From positions 1 through 64,000 of the forward strand of contig JAIXOI010000028.1 of NCBI GenBank assembly GCA_027486795.1: a stretch of DNA of 64,000 bases. The letters are read 5' to 3'. The notes under the pieces were generated by a model. The model saw nothing but the letters and a program-made list of their open reading frames with translations. It made no database searches and was not told where the DNA came from. Source of the DNA: Sphingobacteriales bacterium. Lineage in GTDB: Bacteria > Bacteroidota > Bacteroidia > Chitinophagales > CAIOSU01. Position numbers and translations under genes: made by a program. Below are positions 49,196-58,425 of this stretch, in pieces; the first letter of the stretch is position 1; every line of letters begins with the position of its first letter.

Positions 49196-49651
49196 TGCCC
49201 CCATGAACCGGTGAAGCTGAATAAATCATAGTTTTATCGTCCACGAAGTGAGGTTTGGCGAGGGTTGCAATAGGATGTACGAAGTACAATGTACAAAGTA
49301 CAAAGTACAATGTGTATTAGTGGCTATGGACTATCGACTATGGACCCTCGTTTTAAACGAGACAAGCAATCGACTAAGCAGTTTTGTCGTCCACGAAGTG
49401 AGTATTGGCGAGGGTTTGGGCCTGTGATGGTCTAAAGATGTAACTACTTGATTGTGTGCAGGTTGTGTGATTTTATTTTGCAATAATCTGATTTACAACT
49501 GATTGTGTTTGTGAATATTTAACATGCACTGACCAGTAATGCAGTGCACCCCAAATACCGCTGATTATTGGCATTGCGTTTAATAGTTGAGATGATGATA
49601 TACTGATTATATACCCTCCTGAAATCACTTTCAAAATATTTATCGTTAACT

Positions 49652-49659
49652 TAGATTTG
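49652..49659 (+). promoter_or_regulatory. -7 element of the PIN toxin-antitoxin operon
   Basis: TAGATTTG, a perfect TAnnTTTG, lies at the end of the block 49625-49658 shared with the other TA locus. It is only 12 nt before ATG 49672, so the transcript leader is very short. Confidence 0.6.
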
Positions 49660-49671
49660 AAGAAAATGGCT

Positions 49672-49905
49672 ATGGATATACAAACTCGAAAACTTCATTT
49701 GATTGAAGATATTTCAAAATTGAACGACCCAGTTATCATAGCTAAGGTGGAAGAACTGCTGCGTGCTAATAGCAGCGCAGCAAGTGAGACCGTTGCAAAA
49801 CCGAATGATTTAAGCAGCATCAAGGGCTTACTTTCTGCGGAGGAAGCGGAGCAATACCATCGTAATATAAAGCAAACGCGCAACGAATGGGAAGAAGGTA
49901 CTTAA
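49672..49905 (+). CDS. Antitoxin of the PIN-domain toxin locus
   Basis: 77 aa from ATG 49672, chosen because its first residues (MDIQTRKLHLIEDISKLND) align with the other antitoxin at 6408; ATG 49666 adds two residues. Residues 1-31 are the shared head. The tail (LSSIKGLLSAEEAEQYHRNI, then KQTRNEWEEGT) is unlike the ParE-type antitoxin tail and resembles the toxin-wrapping tails of VapB-like proteins. Its last 19 bp overlap the toxin gene, so synthesis is coupled. Confidence 0.8.
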   Translation: MDIQTRKLHLIEDISKLNDPVIIAKVEELLRANSSAASETVAKPNDLSSIKGLLSAEEAEQYHRNIKQTRNEWEEGT

Positions 49906-50288
49906 TTGATAGCAATGTGATTATTGATTATGCTGCCAATAAGCTACCAGATAAAGCATTGGCTTTTGTAGAGCAGTTGTTTCAAAAGGATTTTTTGATT
50001 TCCGTGGTAGTTAAAATCGAAGTGCTGGGCTACAATGATTTACCAGAGAAACAGTCGGCACTAGAAGCATTCTTAAATACTTCCATCTCATTTCCGCTGG
50101 ATGATACGGTTGCGGCAACAGCTATTCAGCTTCGTAAGGAAAAGAAGCTGAAACTAGGCGATGCCATTATTGCTGCAACAGCCCTAACTCACAACCTTAC
50201 CTTGGTAACCAGAAACACCAGTGATTTTAGCAGCCTTACTACTTTGCAGGTTTTTAATCCTTGGGAGATTGACAGGGCTTTAAAATGA
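49887..50288 (+). CDS. PIN-domain ribonuclease toxin (VapC-like)
   Basis: 133 aa. The four PIN acidic positions are present: Asp8 in LIDSNVIIDY, Glu45 in KIEVLGY, Asp92 in LGDAIIAATAL and Asp113 in TRNTSDF. Length and order fit VapC toxins, which cut tRNA or rRNA. The toxin looks intact, unlike the ParE-type toxin at 6109. Its operon starts from the shared promoter block at 49625. No terminator is evident downstream. Confidence 0.9.
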   Translation: MGRRYLIDSNVIIDYAANKLPDKALAFVEQLFQKDFLISVVVKIEVLGYNDLPEKQSALEAFLNTSISFPLDDTVAATAIQLRKEKKLKLGDAIIAATALTHNLTLVTRNTSDFSSLTTLQVFNPWEIDRALK

Positions 50289-50517
50289 CCACTTCAATTT
50301 AGTGCTCTTGGCGCTACCCTAATGGATAGGAGTTTTGCAGTGGTCTGACGGCTACTTTTGGAATGGGGTAGGGCAGTGGCGGTGCGCTTTGGGGTATTCG
50401 TCAGACCACTTGTTGCGGGGCTGACGCCAAGAGGGTAATATGTTACTTTTAAACAAAACGCAACACAACATGGTTTATAAAAAAATAAATGCTCAACAGC
50501 AACTAAAACCAAGATAA

Positions 50518-52587
50518 ATGATGAAAACACTGAAACTACTTTTAGTATTTACCATCGTATTAATGTACTATAACGCTGTTGCCCAAATCCCAACTTGCTC
50601 CCCAACGGGTAATATTTTGATTTTTTCAAATTATGATGGAGGAGAACTTAATATTAACATTGACCAGAATATTCCAAACTTAAAAATTGGTGTTTGCACC
50701 TATGAACCAGTTCGCATAACCATAAGCGGTCCTTTTGCCAGTAATGTTGTGCAAGTATTGTATGCTGGATTCAATTCTGTGCAAAATAACAACAACTGCA
50801 ATATCGGAAATTTTCCTACATCCATTACGGGGGTGCCATTATCCAATCAATCAATACTAACAGCGCCGCCTATAACATTAAACAATCCTAATGGCTACAA
50901 TTTTGGGATTATTTGCGGGTATAGTTGTGATGTGAATTCAAATCAAGGAGGTTGTAATACCATTGACCAAATTGAAGACTATTTTATAACACAACTAGGT
51001 GGTACCTTGTATTCTTTGAATGCACAATATTGTTGTTGGTTGGGCTCAGACCAATATCAAGTTTCTCAATTAGCTGGCAGTTGTTGCAATACTAGTAGTA
51101 GCACTACAACCTTAACATCTGCTATTGGCACTGATAATCAAAGTGTTTGCATCAACAATGCTATTGCAAGCATCACATATTCATACAACAATTTCGCGCC
51201 CACAATATCAGGGCTTCCCAATGGAGTAAACTCTACTATTAACAACGGTATAGTAACAATTAATGGAACGCCAACAATAGCGGGTACATTCAATTATAAT
51301 CTATCAATACCTGGCAATTGTGGTGGTGTACAAACTACTACCGGAACTATTATTGTAAATGATTTATCAGGAGCAACCATTGTGGCAAGCGCTTGCAATA
51401 GCTATACCGCTCCGTGGGGAAATGTGTACACGCAAAGCGGAACCTATACCGATACACTTTCCGCCCTAAACGGCTGCGACAGTATCGTCACCCTTAACCT
51501 TACTATTACTGGCGCAATCATAACTCCGCCCATTACCACAAGCGCATGCAGCCCCTATACCGCCCCGTGGGGAAGGGTGTACACGCAAAGCGGAACCTAT
51601 ACTGATACGCTTTCCGCCCTAAACGGCTGCGACAGTATCGTTAGCCTTAACCTTACTATTACTGGGGCAATCATAACTCCGCCCATTACCACAAGCGCTT
51701 GTAGCACCTATACTGCTCCGTGGGGAACTATTTACACGCAAAGCGGAACCTACACTGATACGCTTACGAGCGTGAATGGCTGCGACAGTATCGTTAGCGT
51801 GAACCTTACTATTACTGGTTTGCCAACAGTAACGGCAAGTTCTCTGGCAGCATCCTGTGGATTGCCAGACGGCACTGCAACTGCTTCTGCTACAGGAGGT
51901 GCTGGCAATTACAGCTATAGTTGGTCAAATGGCGTTACAGGCAACTCGGTAACTGGCCTTTCATCGGGCACCTACGTAGTTACTGCCACCGACCAGAATG
52001 GCTGTTTCTCCTCCATTCAAGTAACCGTTTTAAGCAATCCTCCAGCTGCGCTCTCAATCACTGCAAATGACTCATGCCTTGAAAATAACATCCCGTTTTC
52101 AATCTTAACAGGAGCAACCATATCAAGCGTAACTTGGAATTTTGGCGACACAGCAAGCGGAGCAAATAATACCTCGGCTAGTTTACAGCCGACACACTTG
52201 TTTTCGAGCACAGGAAGTTACAATGTAACCGCCAATATTCTGGCCACCTGCGGTAGTTTTGAAATAAACTATCCCCTGCAAATAGTGCGGTGTGACAGTG
52301 TTATCAACGATTGTGCATTATACGTTCCCAATGCATTTACTCCAAACGATGATGGAATAAATGATAAGTTTTATCCAATAACAAGTTGCGCATTGCAACA
52401 GTACGAATTGTTGATTTTTGATAGGTGGGGCGAGATAATTTTCAAAACATCAAACCAGTTAGACAAATGGGATGGAAAAGCTAAAAGTGATGAGTGTCCC
52501 GATGGTGTCTATGTTTATTTGATATCGTATAAACTCCCTTCACAACCTATAAAAAGTGTTTACGGTACCATTGCACTTTTAAGGTAA
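50518..52587 (+). CDS. Large secreted T9SS protein with tandem, SprB-like and PKD modules
   Basis: 689 aa; the signal peptide is MKTLKLLLVFTIVLMYYNAVAQ. A Cys-rich N-region (about 30-215) has no recognised family. Three 51-aa repeats at about 291-435 follow (SACNSYTAPWGNVYTQSGTY type, then NGCDSIV). Next come a SprB-like repeat (VTASSLAASCGLPDGTATAS, about 437-508), a PKD-type domain (SSVTWNFGDTASG, about 515-595) and a C-terminal gliding-motility-type sorting domain (YVPNAFTPNDDGINDKFYP to IALLR). Such proteins are exported by T9SS and act at the cell surface, often in adhesion or gliding. Monocistronic. Confidence 0.88.
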   Translation: MMKTLKLLLVFTIVLMYYNAVAQIPTCSPTGNILIFSNYDGGELNINIDQNIPNLKIGVCTYEPVRITISGPFASNVVQVLYAGFNSVQNNNNCNIGNFPTSITGVPLSNQSILTAPPITLNNPNGYNFGIICGYSCDVNSNQGGCNTIDQIEDYFITQLGGTLYSLNAQYCCWLGSDQYQVSQLAGSCCNTSSSTTTLTSAIGTDNQSVCINNAIASITYSYNNFAPTISGLPNGVNSTINNGIVTINGTPTIAGTFNYNLSIPGNCGGVQTTTGTIIVNDLSGATIVASACNSYTAPWGNVYTQSGTYTDTLSALNGCDSIVTLNLTITGAIITPPITTSACSPYTAPWGRVYTQSGTYTDTLSALNGCDSIVSLNLTITGAIITPPITTSACSTYTAPWGTIYTQSGTYTDTLTSVNGCDSIVSVNLTITGLPTVTASSLAASCGLPDGTATASATGGAGNYSYSWSNGVTGNSVTGLSSGTYVVTATDQNGCFSSIQVTVLSNPPAALSITANDSCLENNIPFSILTGATISSVTWNFGDTASGANNTSASLQPTHLFSSTGSYNVTANILATCGSFEINYPLQIVRCDSVINDCALYVPNAFTPNDDGINDKFYPITSCALQQYELLIFDRWGEIIFKTSNQLDKWDGKAKSDECPDGVYVYLISYKLPSQPIKSVYGTIALLR
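51388..51822 (+). repeat. In-gene tandem repeat, 153-bp period, about 2.8 copies
   Basis: Units begin at 51388, 51541 and 51694 and are nearly identical over long stretches (TACACGCAAAGCGGAACCTA in each). The high DNA identity suggests recent duplication or ongoing homogenisation, so copy number may vary between strains. Confidence 0.85.
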
Positions 52588-52921
52588 AGTACCCACCTTA
52601 TCTGGCGCAAGTATCTACTTGTGCCTAGCTATGCCGCCAGTATCCACTGGCGTTTTAACAGTAGCATACAAACAAAAATATACAAACAATTGCTAAGTGC
52701 TTTCTATGAGTCAGTGTACCGACAAAAAAGGTATTCTGGATGCGGTTGTTGTGGCATGGGTATTTGAGCTATAGCTATACGCAAGCAAATGCTTGCTTTA
52801 TGCTATGGCACAAGTAAATACTTGCGCCAGATATGGGGGTATTTGCGCTGCAGTTGTATGCAAGCAAATGTTTGCTTCATGCTATGGCATCGCTTTTAAA
52901 ACGGGACGCCAGATAGGCGGA
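52588..52921. repeat. Palindrome-rich 334-bp intergenic region left of the putative nuclease gene
   Basis: No gene. It holds hairpins with AAGTA or AAGC arms: GGCGCAAGTA/TACTTGTGCC near 52603-52624, CGCCAGT/ACTGGCG near 52635-52652, GCAAGC/GCTTGC at 52781-52796 and GGCACAAGTA/TACTTGCGCC near 52807-52828, plus the direct repeat 52744-52796. The last hairpin-like string (TTTTAAAACGGGACGCCAGATAGG) abuts the stop codon of the next gene. Confidence 0.7.
52744..52796 (+). repeat. Left direct repeat flanking the 771-aa gene
   Basis: This 53-bp segment (starting GGTTGTTGTGGCATGGGTAT and ending CGCAAGCAAATGCTTGC) matches 55352-55404 in the same orientation over its whole length, with roughly four of five bases identical. 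Both copies are followed by a TTTAAAACGGGA-CGCCAGATAGG/AGCCAGACAGG string. Confidence 0.75.
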
Positions 52922-55237
52922 TTATCCTTGATTCTTATGTTTTAATACCAAATTGTCCACATTAACAAAAAACTCTGGGCTTATCTCGCGTCTGGTCGAT
53001 TTAGTCAATTTTTTTAATTCATTTTCTATTTCATCAAGCAAATAATCGACGTCATAATCATTAATTAGAGCAAACAAGTCTTCTATGTTTAGCTTGTCGT
53101 TAAAAGTATAGTGGTGATGTAATTGAATAACAATTTGCTCTACCGGCAAACCATCCGAATCAATTCCTTCAGCCACTTTAACTTGACTTAAATCAAAATA
53201 ATATTGTTCTTTAAAATCTTTATATTTGTTAATAAATTTTATTCCCGATTCAGTCTTTAAATCTGTCAACTTGACAATTATATCAATAATACCTTGAGTT
53301 TTACCTTTCAGATTAAAACCATCATCAAGAACAGCTAATATATCCTTTGTTATGAGACCGGGATTAATTTTAAGATCTAGCAATAGTAGATGGTTGAGTA
53401 ATTTGGAGGGCGAAAACAGATGCCAAAGTTTATCAACTCTCTTTCTTTTTTCATAATAAGTTTTTCTCGCACCATAAAAAGCTAGGTCCCAAGTGGAGAA
53501 AATCACTTCATCGTAAGAATTGTTTTTGCTAAACAAAAATGTCAGAACATTTGCATCATTAACTATTGACGCCTCTGCTCTAGATCTTTTCCTTACTGTT
53601 AATGCGGCCTTTATGGAATCAATGGCGGTTTCTTTATCTTCTCCAAAGGTGTTTTCTACTTCAATACCTAAACTTTGTAATCTTTCCCTTACAATGTTAC
53701 TGGCGAAGGTGAAAAACTTTGAATCTGTTGTATCATCCTCTCCTAATTGAAACATCTCGAACAGAAAATCTCCTAGATCATTTATTCCTTCCTCTAATAA
53801 GTCCTCCATTTTTAGAAAGAGAAAGAAATTGATAAACACATTATTTGTAGTGCCCAAGCTACCAATTAGCCCCATTCTTTCATAGGGAATTAAATAAAGA
53901 GCTTCCTTTAAATGAAAACAGATTTCTCCAATATATCCATTGCTGATCTTGATGTGAAAGTTTTTCTTTCTATCTGAATATTTCATTAAATCTTTAACTA
54001 TTGAATAGTAAAGATTATTGTAACCTCTTATTTTATACAGATTTAACAATCCATATATACCTATTTGAGCATCTACAAATACTACTCGCTCTTTTTGATT
54101 AAGATACTGCTGTAATAGTTCTGGATTTGTAAATCTAGCTAAAGCATTGCATGCACTGGTTCTGGAAAAAAAATCATTTTTTTCACACAGGGTTAAAAGA
54201 TCTTTTAAAAGAATGGACGTATTTGTTGTATCACTCGTTAACTTTTCAAGTTCCACCTTTAGTTTTTCATAATCCTTATCACTAGTTTCTAGCTTTATCT
54301 CATCTTCGGTTATCTCTTGAATGCCTATAGTAAGAGCCTTTTCAAAAGTTTGATATAGTAATTCGAAAATCTTTCCCTGTTTATCCTCTACACCATGAAC
54401 CTTCAAAATTTCTAACAATTCTTTTTCAAACAGCTGTTCTTGTAACTGAAATTTTGACTTAACATTATTAATCCGATCAGTTTCTCCTTCAGAAAGTTTT
54501 ACCTCAGTTTTTAGAATACTTGTATATTCAACTTTTCCTTCCGTTTCAAGCCCTTGCAACACTCGACTCATAAAAGGCTGATTATAGGATGTACCCATAA
54601 TTCCATTGCACTTTTCCGTTAATGCTACAATTAGCATTTTATCGTGATTAAAAAGGGTGTGAACTACAATACTATTTAGTAATTGCTGCTTAATCTCAGT
54701 AGCATCATCACTAAATGAGATTAAATCAAAATACATTCTTGTGTATTCATTCTTAAATAAATTAACTTGCTTTTCTTCTAGTTTCAGTATTGTTCGTATT
54801 AAGTTTGTTAAAATGGGGCTTTCAAGAGATTGGGCCATAAGACGCCTTCCATCATAGATCTCTACAGATATGTTATAGTCTAAAATTGCCTTTAATTTAA
54901 GCTCCTCCTGCTTTTCAGCTGAAATAGTATGGGAACAGAAAAAAAACAATTTATTTTGAAAGCCATATTTTAATACGTTTTCTTGAGCTTTCCTTGCATC
55001 CTCAAGTACTTTTTCATCCAATTTTTTTTCTTGAGTTGTTATTTGTATTGGAAGCTTTAAACCTCTGTTGCCGATATAGAAACGTAAGTCATTACCTCCG
55101 TCATTAGTACCATCTATGGGTACGATGTCGTTTATTTTAAAGCACTCTTTAATATAGGCGACTACTAATTCTTGCATTTGCCCTATAGTAAAGCCTTTAA
55201 ACCATTTCACATGGTTGTCTAAATAATCCTTTTCCAA
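52922..55237 (-). CDS. Putative dual-nuclease protein: Mrr-like PD-(D/E)XK plus PIN-like domain
   Basis: 771 aa, cytoplasmic, visibly AT-richer than its neighbours. Residues about 20-135 look like a restriction-endonuclease fold: GTNDGGNDLRFYI (Asp50 as the metal acid) followed by KLPIQITTQ at 61-69 (the QxT variant of ExK). Residues about 185-250 fit a winged helix (FMSRVLQGLETEGKVEYTS). Residues about 384-620 fit a PIN-like domain: VVFVDAQIGIYGLLNL with Asp389, EASIVNDANVLTFLF with Glu555/Asp561, and VIFSTWDLAFYGAR with Asp584. It is a lone gene between direct repeats, as expected of an acquired defence factor. The fold calls come from motif reading only; the function is inferred, and no named family is recognised. 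Confidence 0.55.
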   Translation of the reverse strand: MEKDYLDNHVKWFKGFTIGQMQELVVAYIKECFKINDIVPIDGTNDGGNDLRFYIGNRGLKLPIQITTQEKKLDEKVLEDARKAQENVLKYGFQNKLFFFCSHTISAEKQEELKLKAILDYNISVEIYDGRRLMAQSLESPILTNLIRTILKLEEKQVNLFKNEYTRMYFDLISFSDDATEIKQQLLNSIVVHTLFNHDKMLIVALTEKCNGIMGTSYNQPFMSRVLQGLETEGKVEYTSILKTEVKLSEGETDRINNVKSKFQLQEQLFEKELLEILKVHGVEDKQGKIFELLYQTFEKALTIGIQEITEDEIKLETSDKDYEKLKVELEKLTSDTTNTSILLKDLLTLCEKNDFFSRTSACNALARFTNPELLQQYLNQKERVVFVDAQIGIYGLLNLYKIRGYNNLYYSIVKDLMKYSDRKKNFHIKISNGYIGEICFHLKEALYLIPYERMGLIGSLGTTNNVFINFFLFLKMEDLLEEGINDLGDFLFEMFQLGEDDTTDSKFFTFASNIVRERLQSLGIEVENTFGEDKETAIDSIKAALTVRKRSRAEASIVNDANVLTFLFSKNNSYDEVIFSTWDLAFYGARKTYYEKRKRVDKLWHLFSPSKLLNHLLLLDLKINPGLITKDILAVLDDGFNLKGKTQGIIDIIVKLTDLKTESGIKFINKYKDFKEQYYFDLSQVKVAEGIDSDGLPVEQIVIQLHHHYTFNDKLNIEDLFALINDYDVDYLLDEIENELKKLTKSTRREISPEFFVNVDNLVLKHKNQG

Positions 55238-55559
55238 AGCAATTTTTTTCCTAAGCTAACGAAATGTTTAGACATCTAATGGAGGCACTTAAATTTCCTT
55301 CTCAAATTAACACATGATAACCCTCAATTTAATAATGCGTATGTTTTATGAGGCTGTTGTAGCAGTTGTTTTTGAGCTGTAGATAAACGCAGGCAAATGC
55401 TTGCCCATGGCTAAGCTTCCCGTTTAAAACGGGAAGCCAGACAGGTAATGGTAGGCTGAAATAGCGAATGGCAACGCCAAATATAGGCCTTGCCCAGCAG
55501 GGTGGCCAACGTATTTGAAATTAAAAAACAAATACTATTTTTGTGGTAAATTAGTAGTT
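55238..55559. other. 322-bp intergenic region right of the putative nuclease gene
   Basis: No gene. It contains the upstream region of the minus-strand nuclease gene, the right direct repeat (55352-55404) and a perfect hairpin TTCCCGTTT/AAACGGGAA (about 55417-55434), whose relative lies at the left flank. The rest appears featureless. Confidence 0.65.
55352..55404 (+). repeat. Right direct repeat flanking the 771-aa gene
   Basis: A 53-bp partner of 52744-52796 in the same orientation (GGCTGTTGTAGCAGTTGTTT ... CGCAGGCAAATGCTTGC). Together they bracket the nuclease-like gene and its promoter region. Confidence 0.75.
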
Positions 55560-57011
55560 ATGAAACAACTATACACGGTATTGTTTATTGCCTTATCGGT
55601 TGGGAATATGCTAGCGCAGCAGTCCACCGAAACCAATGTGCTCAACTCTAGATTGATTGCTACCAATACCGAAAGGTGGACTTCCGGAAGCTGGGCTGAG
55701 CAGGACTCTACTCACTATACGTACTCGGGTACCCGGGGCGGCGAGTATGTGAACAGTCAATTGTTTGCCGATTATGATTTGGGCCAAAGTTGGTATTGGC
55801 AAGGCGGCACGCCCACCAATGCTAACCTTTATGAAAGAACCTACGACGCCAACAACCGTTTGATACAGACCGTAATTAAATTCTGGAACAACGCGGCTTG
55901 GACCAATAACACCAGAGAGACAACTACCTACGGGCCTTATGGCTTAACGGACTTTCTTTCGGAAGAGTGGGACGGCAGCGCGTGGGTAGGCTCTTACCGG
56001 ATTAATTATATTTTTGATGCTGCTGGCAATGAAATAACTGGGCAACGTGACATTTGGAATGGCACTGTTTGGGTAGGTAGCACGAAAGTTTTTTCAACAT
56101 ACAATGCCAACAACGAACTGCTTACCCGCACTACGCAGAATTATCAATCGAGCACTTGGAGAAACCAATACCGCTACTTTTATACGCTGGATGCAGCGGG
56201 CAATATTTTGAGTTATACTTACGAAACCTGGAACACGGGCACCAGTGCTTGGGAGCCATCGAACAGGAGGCAATATACTTACAATGCCGCGGGCAAGGAA
56301 CTGACAATGGTACTGCAACAATACAACAATGGTAATTGGGAAGATGATGACCGCGAAACGAGAACCTATAACGGGCAAGGATACTTGACGCGCAAACTTA
56401 TTGAAACATACGCAAGCGGCACTTGGCAAAACACACAACGAACCGACTACACGCCGAACAGTGTAGGTTTAGATACGGAAAAATTGGTGTATTCATGGGC
56501 TAACGGAATATGGAACGAAACCTCTCGCGACAGGAGCACCTATGATGCAGCCGGCAATAAATTAACTTTTGTAACCAGTACCTACGTTTCTGGTGCTTGG
56601 AACGACCAGTATAGCGCAGTTTATACCTACAACGCTTTCAACCAATGGGTAACTTTTTTGTACCAAGAAAATTTCGGTAGCGGGTTAGAAAACAACATCC
56701 GCGCTTTTTATTACTACGAAACGTACGAAGATGGTACATCGGGCATTACAACACTGCCTACGTTGTCGTCGGTGGTGTTGCCAAACCCGTTTACCATAAA
56801 TGTAGCTATACAATTGCAGGTAACCGAGGCGGGCAACCATACTTTTGAGGTGTATAACATGGCTGGTCAGCGCGTGCACACTGAGAGCCGCCACCTTACA
56901 CCTGGCCCACAAACCATCGTTTGGGATGGGCAGCAAGTGCCACAAGGCGTGTACTTTTATAAAATACACGCCCAAAGCGGCCTAGCCAGCGGTAAGTTGG
57001 TAAAGCAATAA
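55560..57011 (+). CDS. Secreted repeat protein with T9SS type A sorting domain
   Basis: 483 aa from ATG 55560; the signal peptide is MKQLYTVLFIALSVGNMLAQ. Residues about 30-390 consist of about 12 degenerate units of roughly 25-30 aa built around a W, a Y-T-Y-strand and a D/N-AAGN turn (YTYNAAGKELTMVLQQYNNG; STYDAAGNKLTFVTSTYVSG), similar in style to YD/RHS-like repeats but lacking an RHS core. The last 80 residues (VVLPNPFTINVAIQL to GKLVKQ) are a T9SS sorting domain. It is probably a surface or secreted binding protein. A terminator follows. Confidence 0.82.
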   Translation: MKQLYTVLFIALSVGNMLAQQSTETNVLNSRLIATNTERWTSGSWAEQDSTHYTYSGTRGGEYVNSQLFADYDLGQSWYWQGGTPTNANLYERTYDANNRLIQTVIKFWNNAAWTNNTRETTTYGPYGLTDFLSEEWDGSAWVGSYRINYIFDAAGNEITGQRDIWNGTVWVGSTKVFSTYNANNELLTRTTQNYQSSTWRNQYRYFYTLDAAGNILSYTYETWNTGTSAWEPSNRRQYTYNAAGKELTMVLQQYNNGNWEDDDRETRTYNGQGYLTRKLIETYASGTWQNTQRTDYTPNSVGLDTEKLVYSWANGIWNETSRDRSTYDAAGNKLTFVTSTYVSGAWNDQYSAVYTYNAFNQWVTFLYQENFGSGLENNIRAFYYYETYEDGTSGITTLPTLSSVVLPNPFTINVAIQLQVTEAGNHTFEVYNMAGQRVHTESRHLTPGPQTIVWDGQQVPQGVYFYKIHAQSGLASGKLVKQ

Positions 57012-57071: not shown

Positions 57072-57540
57072 GTTGGCCAAAGGGCTACCGCCAAATATAG
57101 TTTAGTAGTGGGAGATGTGAGAGTATAAAAATTTAATCAATTGAAATACAATAGATAGTAGCAGTAGTATAAAATTATTTTAACTTCTACTTGCGAAGAA
57201 TAAAACACAGCTGTAAATTAGTGATTAGTTGATTGGTTGATTAGTTGATTGGTCCATGGTCCATGGTCCATAGTCCATGGTCCATAGTCCATAGTCCATG
57301 GTCCATAGTCCATAGTCCATGGTTGATAGCTTGCCTCGCCTCAGGCGAGGGTTGATAGCTTGCCTCGCCTTGGGCGAGGGTTGATCTGTCATTTCCTATC
57401 TGTCATCTCTCATTTCTCATCTGTCATCTGTTATTTCTCATTTACTATCTCTTATTTCTCCTTTCCCATTTATTGTTTTCCATTTTCAAATTTCCAAATT
57501 ACCTAATTTCCAAATTTCCAAATTCTCAAATTATCTCGCT
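57072..57540. repeat. 470-bp block of microrepeats
   Basis: No gene. After about 150 bp of AT-rich sequence come, in order: GATTGGTTGATTAG stutters (57222-57252), TCCATAGTCCATGG stutters (57253-57324), two TTGATAGCTTGCCTCGCC units with the CTCGCC-palindrome (57335-57378), TCATCTCTCATT stutters (57387-57470) and TTTCCAAATT stutters (57480-57535) ending at the next ATG. Unit lengths are 7-14 bp and irregular, so this is neither a simple satellite nor a CRISPR. Confidence 0.85.
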
Positions 57541-58425
57541 ATGCCCCGCCCACCCAAAATTAATCGGGAGATATTGCAAATCTTCCGCAATCTGGTTAAA
57601 GAAGAAAACCTATTGTTGGCCTGTACCGACGAAGACATGGTGATGATGCTCAACGAAGAGTTATTTGTTGAGCACCGGATAAGCTACCGCACGTTTCAGC
57701 GCTACAAAAGCCGTGCCTTGCGGCAAATGCCCATACCCGATGCCGACCCACTGTATATCGATTTGTTTACTATCCTGCGCACGGGATATGTGCGGCTGCG
57801 CCAGCAATTGCTCGGTGCGGTTATAAAAGACAATATTGGCTGCAAACGATACATGTGGATATTAGAGCGGAAATTTAAGGAATGGAACATACGCTGGGTA
57901 GCACCCGAATTGGAGCTCGCCGAAAACCCTGAGGAAGCCATAGTAGAGGATACCGATAATTACCCAACCTTAACGGGCACTTACTACGACCTGAACATGG
58001 ATGTGCGCCCTAAAGACATTGCGCCTGTTGATAATGCCATTTTTCAGGGTTATGTAATACCCAACCCCGACTACCAGGGCGAAGAAAACGATACTACGCG
58101 TGCCATAAAGGCTATGTGCGAGTTTATGGAGGAGAATAAACTACCCGAAGGAGAGCATCTTAAGCTGTTGGCGCAGCGTGGTGCCGAAACGGACAAGCGT
58201 TTGGCCGCAAAACGGCAGCAAGAGGCCGAGCTGGCTGCACAAGAGGCCAAGTTGCCCCCAGCCAGTCCACACCCGATGCGCACCAAGGAGCAAAGAATGT
58301 TGAGTAACCCGCGGAGGGGGCTGTTTACGAAAATTAAAACAAGTGCAGGCCAGTTGTACGAAGAAACACCAGAGAGTATGACCTACGAGCCTTTTGCCAC
58401 CGACGGAACGCTGGCAAAGTGGTAA
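57541..58425 (+). CDS. Hypothetical protein with HTH-like N-terminus, 294 aa
   Basis: Basic N-terminus (MPRPPKINREILQIFRNLV) and the pattern DEDMVMMLNEELFVEHRIS followed by YRTFQRYKSRAL, resembling a helix-turn-helix of the kind seen in small terminase subunits or transposon regulators. A second helical region (about 80-125) follows, then an acidic middle and an Ala/Glu/Gln-rich coil (about 215-240). No phage gene is nearby. The coding style is GC-richer than the surrounding microrepeats, and the frame is clean over 885 bp, so it is a real gene. Function unknown. Confidence 0.65.
   Translation: MPRPPKINREILQIFRNLVKEENLLLACTDEDMVMMLNEELFVEHRISYRTFQRYKSRALRQMPIPDADPLYIDLFTILRTGYVRLRQQLLGAVIKDNIGCKRYMWILERKFKEWNIRWVAPELELAENPEEAIVEDTDNYPTLTGTYYDLNMDVRPKDIAPVDNAIFQGYVIPNPDYQGEENDTTRAIKAMCEFMEENKLPEGEHLKLLAQRGAETDKRLAAKRQQEAELAAQEAKLPPASPHPMRTKEQRMLSNPRRGLFTKIKTSAGQLYEETPESMTYEPFATDGTLAKW

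What the first reader, a model, noticed from the sequence alone, without database searches (positions are those of the whole stretch)
52922..55237. Candidate undescribed single-gene defence factor with two nuclease-like domains
Seen: a lone 771-codon, AT-rich gene. Its N-terminal GGND...QITTQ resembles the PD-(D/E)XK core of Mrr-like nucleases. A wHTH-like segment lies at 185-250. A later region has the four-part PIN signature (VVFVDA, Glu555/Asp561, STWD584). Known: single defence proteins often fuse a nuclease to sensing modules. Inferred: one domain may sense or act on DNA and the other on RNA. I do not recognise this combination as a described system.
Basis: partly seen in the sequence, partly recalled or inferred. 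Interest (0 to 1): 0.85.

Follow-up and report, generated by a model that had tools for sequence, protein, structure and literature searches.

The report
Lone mobile two-nuclease defence candidate
A rare, mobile bacterial gene encodes one protein that joins a restriction-enzyme-like domain, a DNA-binding-like domain and a toxin-type RNA-cutting-like domain; where its relatives sit suggests that it protects cells against phages, but this has not been tested here.

Summary
The gene is real: a lone, AT-rich 771-codon ORF (TTG start) at 52922-55237, minus strand. No Pfam, PADLOC, NCBIfam or PHROGs model fits it. Relatives, 16-25% identical to it in alignment A5, occur in Bacteroidota, Alpha-, Beta- and Gammaproteobacteria and a Clostridia MAG.

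Two AlphaFold models led by different members suggest three domains: an Mrr/MspJI-like PD-(D/E)XK fold (1-157), a winged helix (about 160-283) and a VapC-like PIN fold (384-611) with about 97 extra residues. In 21 of 21 sequences checked, D50, Q65, K76 and the PIN acids D389, E438, D561, D584 are invariant.

Relatives sit at the P2 gpA-gpQ defence hotspot, in or beside Rac-like and filamentous prophages, on a conjugative plasmid, behind a Tni-type transposition set, beside Septu and beside a SIR2_2 gene.

Best reading: a mobile single-gene anti-phage protein whose DNA-facing N-terminal half controls a PIN RNase effector. Folds are predicted and defence is inferred from context; no activity is shown. 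Overlap with recently screened E. coli systems (DefensePredictor) could not be excluded.

The parts
52922..55237 (-). 771-codon gene, TTG start, stands alone
54767..55237 (-). residues 1-157: Mrr/MspJI-like PD-(D/E)XK fold; invariant G43 D46 G48 D50 Q65 K76; position 67 is T or S in place of the usual Lys
54389..54760 (-). residues 160-283: winged helix-turn-helix followed by a long helix (MarR/PadR-like)
   Evidence: fewer and weaker rows
54089..54388 (-). residues 284-383: mostly helical connector, no fold assigned
   Evidence: secondary structure
53405..54088 (-). residues 384-611: VapC-like PIN fold, acids D389 E438 D561 D584 invariant in 21 of 21
53573..53893 (-). residues 449-555: stretch that holds most of the roughly 97 residues in excess of a VapC (exact borders not determined), with invariant N466
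52925..53404 (-). residues 612-771: C-terminal, mostly helical region, shorter in the Serratia/Pseudomonas/Qipengyuania rows
52731..52917 (.). two imperfect REP-like repeat units downstream of the gene
55339..55445 (.). REP-like repeat upstream of the gene, in direct orientation to the downstream ones

Best explanation
The gene encodes a single-protein, horizontally moving anti-phage factor, probably of the abortive-infection type. The N-terminal Mrr/MspJI-like domain and the winged helix bind a feature of invading nucleic acid (inferred); the Mrr-like domain may also cut DNA with a lysine moved from beta-strand 3 to the next helix (K76) (inferred). Binding releases the VapC-like PIN domain, which cleaves RNA and stops growth or phage production (inferred). 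Since no antitoxin gene is next to it, the toxin-like PIN domain must be held inactive in cis until infection (inferred). Shown here: invariant positions at the predicted active sites, purifying selection among close relatives, patchy distribution, and location of relatives on mobile elements and in defence loci. Predicted here: the three folds.
For: Three-domain prediction in two models led by proteins 16% identical. D50/Q65/K76 and D389/E438/D561/D584 invariant in 17 of 17 aligned sequences, the window's included, and in 4 of 4 further relatives not used to define them. One relative (L027) passes Pfam's Mrr_cat cut-off, 21.3 against 21 bits. An E. coli and two IMG/VR copies lie between gpA and the portal gene of P2-like prophages, the site that Rousset et al. 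2022 report as a hotspot of anti-phage systems (PMC9122126 section 10). A relative lies 0.5 kb upstream of Septu ptuAB; one lies 1 kb from a SIR2_2 gene on a Rhizobium plasmid; one shares the P2 hotspot with PADLOC candidate PDC-S49. Others are on a conjugative plasmid, directly behind a TniB/TniQ/Mu-type transposase set, and in or beside two filamentous prophages. Rare in E. coli: 4 of 5426 genomes by blastn, which would miss distant relatives. The window locus is missing from a congener with 93% identical flanks. dN/dS is 0.05-0.13 in five close pairs.
Against: No activity or phage data. The PIN and PD-(D/E)XK assignments rest mainly on fold matches: sequence profiles found no PIN or nuclease in the PDB, and no Pfam PIN hit appeared among 17 members at E up to 1. 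The best PDB profile hits were CARD domains of RIPK2 (E 0.037, profile positions 211-279, the winged-helix region), which I take as chance. Foldseek itself gave no E-value below 0.001. Model confidence is moderate (pLDDT 76 and 75, pTM 0.56 and 0.54), lowest around residues 41-60 of the first domain. The Z yardstick printed is 7 to 8 for models without a clear match but 14 for mostly helical ones. The two alignments overlap, so the models are not independent. The usual catalytic lysine is absent in all 21 sequences, so the first domain may not cut. Two of the collections are made of mobile DNA; of 13 distinct loci from the others, 3 are clearly in or beside mobile elements. Several relatives (Serratia, Qipengyuania, G076, G272) sit among ordinary chromosomal genes.
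Confidence: 0.66

Rival explanations
1. A type IV-like restriction enzyme: the N-terminal nuclease plus winged helix reads modified phage DNA, as DpnI-type PD-(D/E)XK-wH enzymes do, and cuts it; the PIN domain is secondary.
For: Same domain order, PD-(D/E)XK then wH, as DpnI-type enzymes (PMC11037411 abstract; PMC3874153 passages). Best fold matches of the first domain are the modification-dependent enzymes AspBHI and MspJI. D50, Q65, K76 are invariant.
Against: The lysine of (D/E/Q)xK is Ser/Thr in 21 of 21. The PIN acids are equally invariant, so PIN is not an ornament. A Gm6ATC reader would be harmful in E. coli hosts, which are usually Dam+ (recalled).
Confidence: 0.14
2. A stability or addiction toxin of plasmids and prophages: a self-controlled VapC-like toxin that kills cells losing the element, with phage defence incidental.
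For: VapC-like PIN fold; carriage by plasmids and prophages.
Against: No antitoxin-sized partner beside the window gene (no ORF over 50 codons in the gaps); many copies are chromosomal; the gpA-gpQ hotspot and neighbours such as Septu and SIR2_2 fit defence better.
Confidence: 0.09
3. A regulatory or RNA-processing protein serving the mobile element (repressor or RNA maturation) with no defence role.
For: wHTH of repressor type; some copies lie among ordinary genes with no defence gene recognised nearby.
Against: The same protein family is found on unrelated elements (P2-like and Rac-like prophages, filamentous prophages, an IncFII plasmid, a Tni-type set, chromosomes), which share no common biology for it to regulate.
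Confidence: 0.06
4. The folds are wrongly assigned and the protein is something else.
For: Moderate model confidence; weak Foldseek E-values; no sequence-profile link to PIN structures; RIPK2 CARD as the best profile hit of the middle region (E 0.037).
Against: Two models with different leading sequences give the same folds, and the invariant residues fall where PIN and PD-(D/E)XK active sites belong (placement of the sites recalled).
Confidence: 0.05

Closest known systems
MspJI/AspBHI and Mrr_cat-type PD-(D/E)XK nucleases
   Same: Fold of the N-terminal domain; Asp and Gln of the D...QxK motif
   Different: QxT/S in place of QxK in 21 of 21; invariant Lys on the next helix instead; no SRA-like domain seen; a PIN domain is added
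DpnI-type PD-(D/E)XK-wH modification-dependent enzymes
   Same: Nuclease fold followed by a winged helix
   Different: Much longer because of the connector, PIN domain and C-terminal region; modification dependence unknown
VapC toxins (PIN RNases)
   Same: PIN fold over the whole VapC length and the four acids
   Different: About 97 extra residues, fused to two other domains, no adjacent antitoxin-sized gene
DefensePredictor DS-3 (PMC13092281, passages read)
   Same: One-protein E. coli anti-phage system with a split PIN domain and no antitoxin, thought to be auto-inhibited
   Different: [quoted passage not shown] ours lies wholly after residue 383 behind an Mrr-like domain. Sequences could not be compared
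Lamassu LmuA
   Same: Weak PADLOC match, 2 of 17 members, best E 6e-5; matched region not shown by that call
   Different: The gene stands alone, whereas Lamassu is a multi-gene system with an SMC-like partner (recalled)
CoCoNuTs (coiled-coil nuclease tandems, PMC11090510)
   Same: Tandem nucleases in a defence system, predicted to target RNA (title and start of abstract in a search listing only)
   Different: A branch of McrBC systems; no NTPase family matched the window protein

Membership tests
PIN domain / VapC-like RNase | PIN fold | tested here: met
   by prediction: VapC chains aligned over 131-132 residues, Z 8.5-9.3; VapC-type chains Z 8.8-10.3
PIN domain / VapC-like RNase | four conserved acidic residues | tested here: met
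   D389, E438, D561, D584 in 17 of 17 plus 4 of 4
PIN domain / VapC-like RNase | sequence-profile match to Pfam PIN | tested here: not met
   no PIN family among the 22 families matched by the 17 members at E up to 1
VapBC toxin-antitoxin | adjacent antitoxin gene | tested here: not met
   window: no ORF over 50 codons in either gap; in other loci only ORFs of 80 codons or more, or annotated genes, were looked at
Mrr_cat PD-(D/E)XK nuclease | fold | tested here: met
   by prediction: AspBHI Z 11.7, MspJI Z 10.4 and 9.2, EcoT38I 8.9, LlaBIII 8.8
Mrr_cat PD-(D/E)XK nuclease | Pfam PF04471 above its cut-off | tested here: inconclusive
   5 of 17 members match at E up to 1; L027 is above the cut-off, L026 is below it, the other three were not shown in detail; the window protein has no match
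Mrr_cat PD-(D/E)XK nuclease | D...(D/E/Q)xK with lysine | tested here: not met
   D50 and Q65 invariant, but position 67 is T or S in 21 of 21; K76 on the next helix is invariant
DpnI-like modification-dependent enzyme | PD-(D/E)XK followed by wH | tested here: met
   by prediction; domain order in both models, winged helix weaker in the second
DpnI-like modification-dependent enzyme | modification-dependent cleavage | not testable with these tools
   needs protein
Known defence systems in PADLOC-DB 2.0.0 | full-length model match | tested here: not met
   0 for the window protein at E up to 10; 4 families with weak matches among 17 members at E up to 1, best LmuA 6e-5
DefensePredictor DS-3 | PIN split between N- and C-terminus in one protein | tested here: inconclusive
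   paper text only; PIN here is 384-611; DS-3 sequence not available
Single-gene anti-phage system | mobile, patchily distributed, near other defence genes in some genomes | tested here: met
Single-gene anti-phage system | protection against phage | not testable with these tools
   needs bench work

The most novel reading that the evidence does not exclude
A one-polypeptide switch in which an Mrr-type restriction fold with a relocated catalytic lysine, plus a winged helix, senses or nicks invading DNA and thereby unleashes a built-in VapC-type RNase: a toxin that carries its own DNA sensor in place of an antitoxin, shared across at least three phyla by prophages, plasmids, transposons and chromosomes.
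Probability: 0.35. Interest if true: 0.8.

Novelty: new variant of a known kind. Interest (0 to 1): 0.62.

Why it matters
If true, it adds a widespread one-gene defence protein that links a DNA-side restriction fold to an RNA-side toxin fold, and it shows how a VapC-like toxin can be kept safe without an antitoxin. E. coli relatives, one of them at a known hotspot, make it directly testable in a laboratory strain.

Tried and rejected
Family libraries: Pfam, PADLOC, NCBIfam and PHROGs gave nothing usable for the window protein (best were SerK_C at E 0.045 and phrog_6732 at E 0.42). The hits other than Mrr_cat (DUF7832, ANC1 domain, OrgC and others) and the Cmr5 hit of one member were judged chance. 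Sequence searches of the PDB found no nuclease in the right place: a VapC at E 1.1 over residues 117-214, RIPK2 CARD at E 0.037 over profile positions 211-279, nothing for the first domain, unrelated proteins for the PIN region. hhalign between the PIN alignment and the VapC-like neighbour at 49887-50288 found nothing, so PIN rests on fold and motif. The structural search of viral models gave no hit under E 0.001.

An m6A-GATC reader like DpnI was rated unlikely because E. coli hosts are usually Dam+ (recalled). The VapBC-like pair at 49657-50288 was considered as part of the unit and rejected: it lies beyond the convergent gene 50518-52587. No homologue is in the phage collection (0 of 50,697 records with each of three queries).

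Papers: the accession search found 0 papers. Term searches for PIN plus Mrr/REase/wHTH fusions listed no paper whose title, abstract start or shown passages describe this combination; passages only were seen of PMC3710099 (12 of 21 places), PMC7159879 and PMC10924106. Lysine migration in PD-(D/E)XK enzymes is recalled; a search for it found nothing. A search on filamentous prophages and defence genes gave nothing used.

Bias: L015-L020, L052 and L053 come from a viral collection, and L005, L055, L056 from a plasmid collection; they cannot show enrichment on mobile elements.

Full report
What is there. The window holds a lone ORF of 771 codons at 52922-55237 on the minus strand, with a TTG start and an in-frame stop directly upstream. 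Its G+C is 31.8% against 44.1% for the window. Its neighbours are secreted-protein genes on the other strand: a CHU_C/PKD protein (50518-52587) and a Por_Secre_tail protein (55515-57011). The gaps on either side hold no ORF over 50 codons. The gene is single-copy in its 3.9 Mb genome.

It is an accessory gene. A congener (G1276, L045) matches the window at about 93% identity up to 48987, in short pieces up to 50419, and again from 56891 onward, but at this locus lacks the stretch 50420-56890 that holds the gene. There it has about 0.7 kb with a 124-codon ORF. In a sample of the window's class 4 of 295 genomes carry the family, the window's own included. In its phylum 5 of 395 do, one of them only a C-terminal remnant beside a transposase gene.

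Relatives. Searches gave 20 distinct loci after merging identical or near-identical copies: the window, three genomes of its class (G076, G194, G272), Thermobacterium salinum (Flavobacteriaceae), a Clostridia MAG, a gammaproteobacterial MAG, Serratia proteamaculans, Pseudomonas proteolytica, a second genome of that Pseudomonas genus (G1305), Pseudoteredinibacter isoporae, Qipengyuania sphaerica (Alphaproteobacteria), E. coli (two types), Raoultella, Chromobacterium and Rhizobium plasmids, and three further IMG/VR contigs. The E. coli collection has carriers in 4 of 5426 genomes: one of one type and three of the other; blastn would miss more distant ones. In the order of the Serratia genome 1 of 247 genomes, in the Pseudomonas genus 2 of 249 and in the class of the Clostridia MAG 1 of 245 had a match, the seed genome counted each time. 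No phage record matched (0 of 50,697 with each of three queries). In the 17-row alignment A5 the window protein is 16-25% identical to the others, and 113 of 136 pairs are under 30% identical.

Anatomy. Thirteen columns of A5 are invariant: G43, D46, G48, D50, Q65, K76, K83, D389, E438, N466, D561, D584, P610. Four relatives outside A5 (L051, L053, L055, L056) keep all of them except K83, which three of the four lack. Position 67, where Mrr-type enzymes carry the lysine of QxK (motif as given in PMC3874153, passages), is T or S in all 21. Two AlphaFold models, one led by the window protein (16 rows, pLDDT 76.4, pTM 0.56) and one by the Serratia relative (14 rows, 75.0, 0.54), match the same folds; their alignments overlap, so they are not independent. 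The yardstick printed with those calls is a typical best Z of 7-8 for models without a clear match, but 14 for mostly helical ones, so the alpha/beta first and third domains, each dominated by one family of hits, weigh more than the winged helix. Foldseek alone gave no hit under E 0.001. Secondary structure puts D50 on the second strand, Q65-T67 on the third, K76 and K83 on the next helix, D389 just after the first PIN strand, E438 in the helix after the second, D561 in a later helix and D584 just after the following strand, as the two folds require (recalled for PIN and PD-(D/E)XK); residues 44-49 are below pLDDT 50. One relative passes Pfam Mrr_cat (21.3 against 21 bits). Two members weakly match PADLOC LmuA, best E 6e-5. 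Against this, the best PDB profile hit of the family was the CARD domain of RIPK2 over the winged-helix region (E 0.037), and no sequence profile reached a PIN protein.

Function from context. (a) P2 hotspot: in E. [quoted passage not shown], with the portal in L016 and L020 recognised by eye). Rousset et al. 2022 describe that gap as a hotspot of anti-phage systems, with 1,650 arrangements in 18,150 loci (PMC9122126, section 10 read). In L020 the hotspot also holds a match to PADLOC candidate PDC-S49. (b) Rac-like prophage (my label from recE, recT, racC, intR) in E. coli NWU_3 and NWU_4, with two annotated genes between it and a LA2681-type HEPN gene; one IMG/VR copy (L019) is broken. (c) In or beside filamentous prophages with Zot genes in L026 and L053; borders not determined. 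(d) An IncFII conjugative plasmid, a Chromobacterium plasmid copy directly behind genes annotated as Mu-type transposase, TniB, TniQ and recombinase, and a Rhizobium megaplasmid copy 1 kb from the record's only SIR2_2 match. (e) In G194 it lies 0.5 kb upstream of Septu ptuA and ptuB (best PADLOC scores 390.6 and 148.5 bits). Five close pairs have dN/dS of 0.05-0.13, one of them near saturation at silent sites; two more pairs were saturated. Against this, of the 13 distinct loci that came from collections not chosen for mobile DNA (11 from whole-genome collections, the window not counted, and two E. coli types), 3 are clearly in or beside mobile elements (two E. coli types, L026), one is beside Septu, two Pseudomonas copies are within 8 kb of phage-tail genes, and the others show nothing telling in the stretches read.

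Mechanism. The four PIN acids are complete and invariant, whereas the Mrr-like site is altered in a consistent way. I therefore take PIN as the effector and the N-terminal half as the sensor or a second nuclease using K76. No antitoxin-sized gene adjoins the window gene, so control must lie within the protein. The long helix after the winged helix resembles that of dimeric PadR/LmrR regulators, which suggests a dimer (inference). Everything beyond predicted fold, conservation and context is inference.

Known or new. PADLOC-DB (2023) has no model for it. DefensePredictor (2026; passages, outline, figure legends and part of its references read) reports 42 new E. [quoted passage not shown] DS-3's description differs from this architecture, but sequences could not be compared, and other systems of that study could be relatives. 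Rousset et al. clustered the proteins of the P2 hotspot, so the E. coli gene may be in their tables without a tested function. Hence 'new variant of a known kind', with the domain combination not found in the libraries and papers searched. On re-checking, I corrected the identity between the two model leaders, the Z ranges and the wording on independence, and lowered the rivals' odds slightly so that all sum to one; the main odds stand.

Noticed in passing
window 52731-52917 and 55339-55445; genome contig C38 5371-8205: Imperfect direct repeats with a palindromic core CAAGCAAATGCTTGC flank the gene; the only other copies found in the genome at E up to 0.001 are on C38 around an ORF (L050 5806-6354) that resembles a REP-associated tyrosine transposase (by eye, recalled). 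The gene may have moved with or into REP-like elements.
   Followed up: partly
window 49657-49905 and 49887-50288: VapBC-like pair: a Pfam PIN toxin (52 bits) behind a short upstream ORF without a Pfam match, 2.6 kb from the target gene; no match to it in the aligned congener stretch L045.
   Followed up: partly
window 49313-49346 and 57252-57330: Inverted repeats built of GTCCATAG/GTCCATGG-like units lie 7.9 kb apart at the two ends of the variable stretch.
   Followed up: no
window 51377-51835: Three tandem 153-bp repeats inside the CHU_C secreted-protein gene.
   Followed up: no
L056 8941-10686 (Rhizobium plasmid): SIR2_2 gene beside the homologue; the only SIR2_2 match in the 1.07 Mb record.
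   Followed up: partly
L046 14299-18555: 1418-aa protein beside Septu and the homologue in G194 with no Pfam or PADLOC match at E up to 0.001; possible further defence gene.
   Followed up: no
L049 9196-10178: C-terminal remnant of the family beside a DDE_5 transposase gene in G373.
   Followed up: partly
L055 11459-16782 (Chromobacterium plasmid): Phage tail sheath, tail and baseplate genes follow the homologue and the Tni-type set on this plasmid.
   Followed up: no
window 57541-58425 and L050 4216-5274: Similar-looking proteins of unknown function lie near the repeats at both genome places (by eye only).
   Followed up: no
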